DNA of 34,682 nt from Phycisphaerales bacterium (lineage in GTDB: Bacteria; Planctomycetota; Phycisphaerae; UBA1845): positions 1 to 34,682 of the forward strand of contig JABFSN010000029.1 in NCBI GenBank assembly GCA_013140575.1, read 5' to 3'. Shown in pieces: positions 13,060-30,694 of this stretch (position 1 is its first letter; each line of letters starts with the position of its first letter). The position numbers and the translations under genes are program-made. The notes under the pieces are model-generated. The model was given only the letters and a program-made list of their open reading frames with translations. It did no database searches and was not told where the DNA came from.

Positions 13060-13142
13060 GCCCCTCCGGGGCTATTTCGCCAGGGGTGACAGGTCCGGGG
13101 GCTGACGCCCCCGGCTACTGACTGTCGCCCCTTCGGGGCTAC
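13060..13142. repeat. REP-like triple hairpin cluster
   Basis: Three hairpins lie in the 12931-13224 gap. The first is GCCCC-TCC-GGGGC at 13060-13072. The second is CCGGGGGC-TGAC-GCCCCCGG at 13095-13114, followed by CTAC. The third is GCCCC-TTC-GGGGC at 13127-13139, followed by CTAC. On the minus strand each is preceded by GTAG or ATAG, the tetranucleotide foot expected of REP elements. The rest of the gap shows no gene. Confidence 0.7.
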
Positions 13143-18999: not shown

Positions 19000-19057
19000 T
19001 CAACGTGTAACCCGTGGCGGTTCAGTGCCATCGGCGAATTCGAAAGGAAATCAATTC

Positions 19058-19285
19058 GTGAAAGTGTCAATTGAGTATTGCATGCAGTGAAACTACGAAC
19101 CCAAGGCCGCCAGTTTGGCGGAGGCGATCAAAAAGAAACACGGAATCGGCGTGACCATGATCGAGGGACGTGGGGGCATTTTTGACGTTCGCGTCGACGG
19201 GTCGCTGGTTTACAGCAAACAGCAGACGGGTCAGTTTCCCGAGCACGCGGAGATCCTCGACAAGCTGGCGACGGTCGCGAAGTGA
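19058..19285 (+). CDS. selW: SelW-like (Rdx family) selenoprotein with in-frame UGA
   Basis: 75 residues if the UGA at 19088-19090 (codon 11) is read as selenocysteine; otherwise the frame stops after ten residues. The start is GTG 19058 with AAGGAAA about 8 bases upstream. The N-terminus reads MKVSIEYCMQU, so the redox motif is C8-x-x-U11 exactly where Rdx/SelW/SelT/SelH proteins have CxxU or CxxC. The rest fits the family throughout: NYEPKAASLAEAI, then VTMIEGRGGIFDVRVDG, then SKQQTGQFPE at 53-62, close to the SelW motif SKKxTGRFPE. The family has a thioredoxin-like fold and is thought to act in thiol redox chemistry, with glutathione for some members. Family membership is strong from the visible residues; recoding is inferred from the frame and the downstream hairpin. 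A Cys-to-stop mutation or sequencing error is the alternative. A hydrolase and a cysteine-pathway gene follow. Confidence 0.8.
19107..19121 (+). promoter_or_regulatory. Candidate bacterial SECIS hairpin
   Basis: CCGCC (19107-19111) pairs with GGCGG (19117-19121) around loop AGUUU. The loop begins 22 bases after the UGA and has G at its second position followed by U. This fits the general bSECIS pattern of a short stable stem within roughly 16-37 bases of the UGA and a loop G near the start. SelB would bind it to deliver Sec-tRNA. The hairpin lies inside codons, so it also encodes AASLAE. Experimental binding is unknown. Confidence 0.6.
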
Positions 19286-19362
19286 CCCTCGCGATCCGGC
19301 GGAGCGCGGCCGATGCGGATCGGAACGATTGATGCCGTCCCTCGCGTTGAACGGGGCGCAAA

Positions 19363-20103
19363 ATGTCAATCCAGGCGAGCATGACATGGTTGGGGCACGC
19401 GGCCATTCGGTTGACGCTGCCGGACGAACGGGTGGTGCTGATCGATCCGTGGCTGCGGGATAATCCGTCATGCCCCGAGGGGATGAAGGATCCGCCGCGG
19501 TGCGATTTTCTGGTGTTCACCCACGGGCACAGCGATCACACCGGCGACGCGGCCCATCTGATCGAACGCCACAATCCGCGGGTCGTGGCGGCCGTCGAAC
19601 TGTGTGCGTTGCTGGGCATGGACAGTCCGAAGGCGCGTTTTTCGCCGATGAACATCGGCGGCACGCAGACGATCGACGGCGTGACGTTCAGCATGACGCG
19701 GGCGTTTCATTCGTCGAGCATCGACGGCAAGAACGGTCCCTTGTATGCCGGAATGCCGGCCGGTGTCGTGGTCCGCGTGCCCGGGTTGGCCGGTTTCTAT
19801 CACGCGGGCGATACGGACGTGTTTTCGGACATGCGGCTGATCGCGGAATTGTTTCAACCGCGAATCGCGGCGCTGCCCATCGGCGATCATTTCACGATGG
19901 GCCCGCGGGGTGCGGCGATCGCCACCCGGCTGTTGGACGTGCGAAACGTGGTGCCGATCCATTTTGGCACGTTTCCGATTCTGCGGGGGACGGTGGCGGC
20001 GCTGCGTGAAGCGCTGGGCGAGGAACTGACCGATCGCGTGGTCGAGCCGAGACCGGGGCAGCCGGTGACGTGGACGGTGGACGGATTGGAACCGGTGGGT
20101 TAG
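19363..20103 (+). CDS. Metallo-beta-lactamase-fold hydrolase (UPF0173 type)
   Basis: 246 residues. The metal-binding motif THGHSDH holds His54, His56, Asp58 and His59. Further ligands are His116 (RAFHSSS), Asp150 (YHAGDTD) and His200 (VPIHFGTFP). This is the full set for a two-metal UPF0173/UlaG-like hydrolase. The short N-terminus before WLGHAA and the GPRGAAIAT segment agree with UPF0173. Members are soluble; substrates are mostly unknown, with UlaG relatives acting on ascorbate-6-phosphate lactone. ATG 19363 is used; ATG 19381 is a possible alternative closer to the usual family start. It lies 77 bases after the selenoprotein gene and 30 bases before the acetyltransferase, all on the plus strand, so one transcript is likely. 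Confidence 0.85.
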   Translation: MSIQASMTWLGHAAIRLTLPDERVVLIDPWLRDNPSCPEGMKDPPRCDFLVFTHGHSDHTGDAAHLIERHNPRVVAAVELCALLGMDSPKARFSPMNIGGTQTIDGVTFSMTRAFHSSSIDGKNGPLYAGMPAGVVVRVPGLAGFYHAGDTDVFSDMRLIAELFQPRIAALPIGDHFTMGPRGAAIATRLLDVRNVVPIHFGTFPILRGTVAALREALGEELTDRVVEPRPGQPVTWTVDGLEPVG

Positions 20104-20133
20104 CGGCTCGCGTCGTCGGTCGATGGATTGCGC

Positions 20134-21117
20134 ATGAACGGTGAATTCGAAATCGGTGACGATCTGACCCGGCTGGTGGACGGCGTGGTCCGCAGCTATC
20201 GGGCGGACGAACGGACCCGGCACATCGGGCAGTCGTTTTTTCCGTCGCGCACGGAAATCGGCGAACTGATCGAGCGTCTGTTGGAACTGGTATATCCGGG
20301 GTTTTTCGGCCGGCAGGGGTTGACCGATCACAACGTGGCCTATCACGTCGGCGAGTTGATTCCGCGAATCGCGTTCATCGCCCATCGGCAGGTTTATCGC
20401 AGCCTGTGCTATCACGACCGGATCAGTCGCGGCGGCGCCACCCACGACCCGTCCTGCGAAGCGCGGGCCGACGAACTGACCCGCGAATTCCTGAATCGGC
20501 TTCCCGGGGTGCGGGCGCGGCTGGCCGACGACGTTCAGGCGGCGGTCGACGGCGATCCGGCCGCGACGGGTTGCGACGAGGTGGTGCTGGCCTATCCGGG
20601 CATGCTGGCGGTTTCGGTCTATCGCCTGGCGCACGAACTGCACGAACTACGTGTGCCGTTGATTCCGCGGGTGATGACCGAATGGGCCCATCGCATGACC
20701 GGCGTGGACATCCATCCGGGGGCCACGGTCGGCCGGTCGTTTTTTATCGACCACGGCACGGGCGTCGTGATCGGCGAGACCACGCACATCGGCGACAACG
20801 TCAAGGTTTACCAGGGCGTGACGCTGGGGGCGTTGTCGTTTCCCAAGGACGCGGGCGGGCGCATCATCCGCGAGGCCAAGCGGCACCCCACGGTCGAGGA
20901 CCGGGTGACCATTTACGCCAACGCGATCATTCTGGGCGGGGAAACGGTGATCGGCCACGATTCGGTCATCGGCGGGTCGGTGTTCCTGACCAGCAGCGTG
21001 CCGCCGCGATCGACGGTCACGTTCGCCCCGCCCGACCTGCGCATCAAGGGTCGCGACGGCGTTTCGCGGCTGCACGACGGCAAGCAGCAGACCATCATTC
21101 CCGATTATCAGATATGA
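20134..21117 (+). CDS. cysE: Serine O-acetyltransferase (EpsC/CysE type)
   Basis: 327 residues from ATG 20134; TTG 20128 is in frame but less likely. The N-terminal ~180 residues are helical (LYHDR- and RLAHELHEL-like segments). The C-terminal half is a left-handed beta-helix of hexapeptide repeats: VDIHPGATVGRSFFIDHG, TGVVIGETTHIG, GVTLGALSFPKD, then VTIYANAIILGGETVIG. The catalytic His is in IDHGTGVVIGE. It transfers acetyl from acetyl-CoA to L-serine, giving O-acetylserine for cysteine synthesis in the cytoplasm. The GALSFPKDAGG insertion and long helical N-terminus match the EpsC-like subgroup rather than E. coli CysE. No cysK is in the window. Its position after a thiol-redox selenoprotein gives the cluster a sulfur/thiol flavour, which is inference. 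Confidence 0.9.
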   Translation: MNGEFEIGDDLTRLVDGVVRSYRADERTRHIGQSFFPSRTEIGELIERLLELVYPGFFGRQGLTDHNVAYHVGELIPRIAFIAHRQVYRSLCYHDRISRGGATHDPSCEARADELTREFLNRLPGVRARLADDVQAAVDGDPAATGCDEVVLAYPGMLAVSVYRLAHELHELRVPLIPRVMTEWAHRMTGVDIHPGATVGRSFFIDHGTGVVIGETTHIGDNVKVYQGVTLGALSFPKDAGGRIIREAKRHPTVEDRVTIYANAIILGGETVIGHDSVIGGSVFLTSSVPPRSTVTFAPPDLRIKGRDGVSRLHDGKQQTIIPDYQI

Positions 21118-25880: not shown

Positions 25881-26064
25881 GCGTCCCGCAGGGACGCCAT
25901 GAATGTAGCCCAGCACTTCAGTGCTGGGAGGACGCCACCCTCTCGATTCGGCTAGTCCCGAAGGGACGGCTGATGCCGAATGCGGCGCTTCAGCCGTCCC
26001 TTCGGGACTCGACCCCATCACGACGTCGGCATACCCCGTGTTGAAACACGGGGCTACATTCATG
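25881..26064. repeat. BIME-like cluster of inverted REP hairpins
   Basis: Located in the 25800-26268 gap. CATGAATGTAGCCC (25898-25911) and GGGCTACATTCATG (26051-26064) form 14-bp inverted ends. Inside them sit GTAG-preceded hairpins CCCAGCAC-TTCA-GTGCTGGG (25909-25928) and, inverted, CCCCGTGT-TGAA-ACACGGGG (26034-26053). Shorter hairpins are GCGTCCC-GCA-GGGACGC (25881-25897), GTCCC-GAA-GGGAC (25955-25967) and a GTCCC-TTC-GGGAC copy near 25996-26008. A separate 9-bp inverted pair CAAGTGGCG/CGCCACTTG lies at 26113-26121 and 26221-26229. No gene is visible in the gap. Confidence 0.75.
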
Positions 26065-30612: not shown

Positions 30613-30694
30613 TTAGCCCCGGCGGGGCGGAAGTTAGTAGCCGGGGGCGCTAGCCCCCGGGCCCGTTACCCCGATCAACAAGCCCCGCAGGGGC
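30613..30694. repeat. REP-like triple hairpin cluster
   Basis: TTAG then GCCCC-GGC-GGGGC (30616-30628) comes first. GTAG then CCGGGGGC-GCTA-GCCCCCGG (30641-30660) follows, and GCCCC-GCA-GGGGC (30682-30694) closes the unit. Same order as the clusters at 13060 and 33413. The central stem equals that at 13095-13114, but the loop differs (GCTA versus TGAC). The remainder of the 30286-30866 gap holds no gene. Confidence 0.7.

What the first reader, a model, noticed from the sequence alone, without database searches (positions are those of the whole stretch)
19058..19285. Overlooked SelW-like selenoprotein gene with in-frame UGA
Seen: a GTG-initiated frame with a good Shine-Dalgarno, one internal UGA at codon 11, then 64 further sense codons that match the Rdx/SelW family to the end, including SKQQTGQFPE. 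The UGA falls exactly at the second redox position of CxxU. Known: Rdx proteins carry Sec or Cys at that site. Inferred: the organism decodes UGA as Sec here. Standard gene callers would stop at residue 10 and miss it.
Basis: partly seen in the sequence, partly recalled or inferred. Interest (0 to 1): 0.85.

Follow-up and report, generated by a model that had tools for sequence, protein, structure and literature searches.

The report
Ordinary bacterial SelW-type selenoprotein gene

Summary
The observation and its interpretation both hold. Window 19058-19285 (+) encodes a 75-residue Rdx/SelW protein (Pfam Rdx, 70.7 bits, cut-off 22.6) with one in-frame UGA at codon 11, at the second redox position of CxxU.

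The same genome (5.05 Mb, 96% complete) holds the full selenocysteine system: a 95-nt tRNA-Sec with anticodon UCA, adjacent selB and selA, and selD. selD itself carries an in-frame UGA at its catalytic position.

Among 298 genomes of the class, all 65 Rdx matches (in 60 genomes) contain exactly one UGA and none is a Cys form. All 60 genomes carry Sec machinery.

Immediately downstream of the UGA lies a hairpin (19107-19121) that meets every rule of the published bacterial SECIS model. It shows compensatory changes across 58 homologues, and the serine codon in its loop is locked to AGT (48 of 49, against 8 of 159 elsewhere in the same genes).

Sequencing error, pseudogene and a recoded genetic code are excluded or made very unlikely. 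Incorporation of selenium itself is inferred, not measured. The family is known (SelW-like was the most abundant family in Sargasso Sea and GOS surveys), so this is a new member of a known kind with low to moderate interest.

The parts
19043..19048 (+). AAAGGA, Shine-Dalgarno-like, 9 nt before the GTG
   Evidence: read from the sequence
19058..19285 (+). SelW-like (Rdx family) selenoprotein gene, 75 residues, GTG start, TGA stop
   Evidence: Pfam PF10262 and NCBIfam NF041051/TIGR02174 above cut-offs; homologues
19079..19090 (+). CxxU redox motif (Cys8-Met-Gln-Sec11)
   Evidence: translation; aligned in the 58 unique TGA homologues
19088..19090 (+). in-frame UGA, selenocysteine codon 11
19107..19121 (+). 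bacterial SECIS hairpin: CCGCCA / loop GUU (19113-19115) / UGGCGG, 22 nt between UGA and loop
   Evidence: fold; fold energy versus synonymous recoding in 58 homologues; covariation and AGT codon lock; model rules from PMC13188914
19363..20103 (+). metal-dependent hydrolase of the metallo-beta-lactamase fold, 77 bp downstream of the selenoprotein gene; neighbour conserved in relatives
   Evidence: Pfam and NCBIfam; synteny
20128..21117 (+). serine O-acetyltransferase-like (CysE-like) gene, conserved as a further neighbour in some relatives
   Evidence: TIGR01172 158 bits, below its 210.65 cut-off; synteny

Best explanation
The locus is a selenoprotein gene of the bacterial SelW-like branch of the Rdx family. 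During translation the ribosome reaches UGA at codon 11. The SelB elongation factor, carrying Sec-tRNA-Sec (tRNA charged with serine, converted by SelA using selenophosphate from SelD), binds the hairpin that begins 16 nt after the UGA and inserts selenocysteine instead of terminating. The finished 75-residue protein has a thioredoxin-like Rdx fold with a Cys8-x-x-Sec11 pair and most likely acts as a small thiol/selenol oxidoreductase. Shown here: the frame, the family, the machinery, the conserved UGA and the conserved hairpin. Inferred from established knowledge: the insertion of Sec, the fold and the redox role. The physiological substrate is unknown.
For: Family: Rdx and SelW models above cut-off; solved Rdx proteins match by sequence. 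Machinery in the same genome: tRNA-Sec 66.4 bits (gathering 47) with anticodon TCA; selB 342 bits for the frame (cut-off 242) directly followed by selA 560.7 bits (cut-off 267.9); selD 365.9 bits (cut-off 125) with its own in-frame UGA in CAGUAGKLP. Conservation: all 65 Rdx matches in 298 genomes of the class have one TGA and none lacks it; 30 of 31 matches in a second collection covering several phyla also have TGA at this column, the 31st TGC. Co-occurrence: 58 of 60 SelW-bearing genomes have a selA match against 51 of 238 others, Fisher p about 1e-28; the two exceptions have selB and tRNA-Sec, their selB lying at or near contig ends. SECIS: the hairpin fits the published rules; the 48 nt from the UGA fold better than synonymous recodings (mean z -1.10, p 4e-9), whereas two control stretches of the same genes do not differ significantly (-0.24 and -0.30); the N2-N3 pair is Watson-Crick in 57 of 58 (40 expected on shuffling), and the N1-N4 pair is Watson-Crick or GU in 56 of 58. 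Coding selection downstream of the UGA: dN 0.27-0.47 against dS above 1.1.
Against: No protein or selenium measurement exists here. The fold of the window copy alone is not exceptional (z -0.55 against dinucleotide shuffles); the SECIS case rests on the set. Neither the codon and pair shuffles nor the Fisher test correct for relatedness, although homologues from several phyla share the pattern.
Confidence: 0.97

Rival explanations
1. A sequencing error or a pseudogene: the true codon is TGC/TGT, or the gene is dead.
For: A single base change would turn TGA into TGC or TGT; the genome is a fragmented assembly of 268 contigs.
Against: The same TGA is present in every Rdx match of the class, 65 of 65, and in 30 of 31 loci of another collection; strong purifying selection downstream of the UGA.
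Confidence: 0.005
2. UGA is read as another amino acid, by a variant genetic code (for example Trp) or by a suppressor tRNA (for example a Cys-accepting allo-tRNA).
For: Cys occupies this place in some other Rdx proteins, for example L078.
Against: Many genes of the window end in TGA, so UGA is a stop here; the TCA-anticodon tRNA examined is a canonical long tRNA-Sec and the genome has selA, selB and selD. Other tRNA genes of the genome were not all enumerated for TCA anticodons.
Confidence: 0.015
3. Not a gene: a chance open frame in GC-rich DNA, the real gene being one of the overlapping frames, such as 19067-19471 on the minus strand.
For: At 64% GC long frames are common: 213 of 901 TGA codons are followed by 64 or more sense codons.
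Against: Rdx scores far above cut-off, homologues in many genera, third-position excess of changes; the overlapping frames match no Pfam family.
Confidence: 0.002

Closest known systems
Bacterial SelW-like selenoprotein family (Pfam Rdx PF10262; NCBIfam NF041051 and TIGR02174; Sargasso Sea and GOS selenoproteomes, PMC1088965 and PMC2398784)
   Same: length, CxxU motif, SECIS hairpin right after the UGA, presence of Sec machinery
   Different: nothing of substance; the host lineage (Planctomycetota, probably Phycisphaerae) was not named for this family in the papers I could read, and no Cys form was found in the 298 genomes of its class
Cys-containing Rdx proteins (for example PDB 2fa8, 2ljk)
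   Same: the same fold family by sequence, CxxC in place of CxxU
   Different: no UGA and no need of Sec machinery
Sec-containing SelD (selenophosphate synthetase)
   Same: second UGA-containing gene of the same genome
   Different: a component of the machinery, not an Rdx protein

Membership tests
Rdx/SelW family | score above the curated family cut-off | tested here: met
   Pfam Rdx 70.7 bits (cut-off 22.6); NF041051 91 (88); TIGR02174 61.3 (34.2)
Rdx/SelW family | CxxC/CxxU motif near the N-terminus | tested here: met
   Cys8-Met-Gln-Sec11, aligned in the homologues
Rdx/SelW family | thioredoxin-like fold | not tested
   sequence match to solved Rdx chains only; no model was made
bacterial selenoprotein gene | in-frame UGA at a conserved redox Cys/Sec column | tested here: met
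bacterial selenoprotein gene | bSECIS: G in the first two loop positions, loop 3-9 nt, upper stem 4-16 bp, spacing 16-37 nt, energy at most -7.5 kcal/mol (rules from PMC13188914) | tested here: met
   loop GUU, stem 6 bp, spacing 22 nt, -10.3 kcal/mol; rules; covariation
bacterial selenoprotein gene | selA, selB, selC and selD in the same genome | tested here: met
bacterial selenoprotein gene | selenium present in the protein product | not testable with these tools
   needs 75Se labelling or mass spectrometry

The most novel reading that the evidence does not exclude
In this class of bacteria the Rdx protein exists only as a selenoprotein and, in the window's family, often sits just upstream of a metal-dependent hydrolase and sometimes a CysE-like gene. 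The three could form a functional unit in low-molecular-weight thiol metabolism, which would give bacterial SelW its first concrete pathway.
Probability: 0.12. Interest if true: 0.55.

Novelty: new member of a known kind. Interest (0 to 1): 0.22.

Why it matters
It is a clean example of a gene that a caller treating every UGA as a stop would cut at residue 10, and it shows how nucleotide-level constraints (SECIS pairs, a locked AGT codon) can support recoding from sequence alone. The family's biological role in bacteria is still unclear, and the conserved neighbourhood here is a modest lead. The finding does not change what is known about selenocysteine.

Tried and rejected
Single-sequence folding of the window's hairpin region gave no significant excess stability, so I turned to the set of homologues. 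Open-frame length as evidence was rejected because the window's GC content makes long frames common. The overlapping frames on both strands were scanned and match no family. Two genomes that seemed to have SelW without selA were followed up and do have selB and tRNA-Sec. No structure prediction was run, since family membership was already clear. Papers naming SelW in Planctomycetota were sought without success; most subscription papers are not held.

Full report
Observation. The frame at 19058-19285 is exactly as described: GTG start, AAAGGA 9 nt upstream, one internal TGA at 19088-19090 as codon 11, 64 further sense codons, and a terminal TGA. An open frame after a TGA is worth little in 64% GC DNA: 213 of 901 TGA codons in the six frames are followed by at least 64 sense codons. 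The evidence therefore has to come from homology and conservation.

Identity. The read-through product matches Pfam Rdx at 70.7 bits (cut-off 22.6) over residues 2-70. It also passes NCBIfam NF041051 'SelT/SelW/SelH family (seleno)protein' and TIGR02174. Solved Rdx proteins such as 2ljk and 2fa8 match by sequence, with Cys at the UGA position. The overlapping frames on both strands match no Pfam family.

Machinery in the same genome. The window is contig C210 of a 5.05 Mb, 268-contig genome, 96.5% complete. It has a tRNA-Sec at C90 (66.4 bits, gathering score 47), which ARAGORN calls tRNA-SeC with anticodon TCA. selB is at C263:12537-14417 (342 bits for the frame, cut-off 242) and is followed directly by selA at C263:14459-15820 (560.7 bits, cut-off 267.9). 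selD at C143 (365.9 bits, cut-off 125) contains an in-frame UGA in the motif SCAGUAGKLP, the known catalytic Cys/Sec place of SelD (the equivalence to the catalytic position is my own knowledge). So a second selenoprotein gene exists in the same genome.

Conservation of the UGA. Of 298 genomes drawn from the class, 60 hold a match to the protein. A search with the Pfam Rdx model gives 65 matches in 60 genomes, every one with exactly one TGA inside and none without. A scan of a second collection, with named records, gave 31 loci from Phycisphaerae, Pirellulaceae, Gammaproteobacteria, Verrucomicrobia, Gemmatimonadetes, Acidobacteria and others; 30 have TGA at the aligned position and one (L078, Acidiferrobacterales) has TGC. 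The nearest named records are Phycisphaerae metagenome-assembled genomes, which suggests the window is Phycisphaerae or near (inference). selA matches occur in 58 of the 60 SelW-bearing genomes and in 51 of the other 238 (Fisher p about 1e-28, not corrected for relatedness). The two apparent exceptions, G236 and G269, have selB and tRNA-Sec above cut-off, with selB at or near a contig end; a selA beyond the contig end is the likely reason, given that selB and selA are neighbours in the window's genome.

SECIS. From the U of the UGA, a hairpin forms at positions 20-34: CCGCCA, loop GUU, UGGCGG (window 19107-19121), -10.3 kcal/mol for the folded 53-nt stretch. The published bacterial model asks for a 3-9 nt loop with G in its first two positions, a 4-16 bp upper stem, 16-37 nt spacing and energy at most -7.5 kcal/mol (PMC13188914); all are met (3 nt, G first, 6 bp, 22 nt). 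In 58 unique UGA-containing homologues the 48 nt from the UGA fold more stably than synonymous recodings drawn from local codon usage (mean z -1.10, Wilcoxon p 4e-9). Two other stretches of the same genes do not depart significantly from their recodings (mean z -0.24 and -0.30, p 0.13 and 0.15). The serine codon in the loop is AGT in 48 of 49 cases but AGT makes up only 8 of 159 serine codons elsewhere in these genes; where the residue is glycine the codon is GGT in 9 of 9. The two stem pairs that lie on third codon positions covary: N2-N3 is C-G 47, T-A 9, G-C 1, and one mismatch; N1-N4 is Watson-Crick or GU in 56 of 58. Shuffles do not correct for shared ancestry, but the alternative pairs occur in different phyla.

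Coding selection. Downstream of the UGA, dN to relatives is 0.27-0.47 and dS above 1.1; close pairs differ mostly at third positions.

Mechanism. UGA plus SECIS recruits SelB with Sec-tRNA-Sec. This is established for bacterial selenoproteins; here its parts are shown and the insertion event is inferred. The product should be a small thioredoxin-like oxidoreductase with a Cys/Sec pair. The 2005 Sargasso Sea paper calls the function unclear and infers redox activity from CXXU.

Neighbourhood. A metal-dependent hydrolase (NF001911, 229.7 bits) starts 77 bp downstream, followed by a CysE-like serine acetyltransferase (TIGR01172 158 bits, below its cut-off). The hydrolase lies downstream of SelW in 10 other genomes of the window's family among the fetched loci, and the CysE-like gene follows in several, with only 1.5-2.5 kb of flank available. 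This may be an operon with a thiol-related theme, but that is speculative.

Novelty. SelW-like was the most abundant family in the Sargasso Sea set (48 genes) and at the top of the GOS table (427 sequences). A 2006 survey already noted that SelW-like has few or no Cys homologues in Sec-using bacteria. The finding is a correct but ordinary new member of a known kind.

Noticed in passing
window 13095-13140 (+), 25882-25928 (-), 30615-30660 (-): Three matches to the Acido-Lenti-1 RNA family (RF01687) within 34.7 kb, all between the main annotated frames; the density suggests a dispersed repeat-like element.
   Followed up: no
window 19058-21117: SelW-like gene, metal-dependent hydrolase and CysE-like gene in one direction; the order recurs in other genomes of the same family.
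   Followed up: partly
L019 1480-2490 (G000 contig C143): selD of the same genome carries an in-frame UGA at codon 18 of the translated frame (SCAGUAGKLP), so it is itself a selenoprotein gene.
   Followed up: partly
298 genomes of the class: Rdx was found only in the Sec form in this class, and about 50 genomes have a selA match without SelW; the gene seems to be lost rather than converted to Cys.
   Followed up: partly
G136 C22 at about 194.8 and 204.7 kb; also G192, G200, G287, G293: Five genomes of one family carry two UGA-containing Rdx genes; in G136 they lie about 10 kb apart on opposite strands.
   Followed up: no
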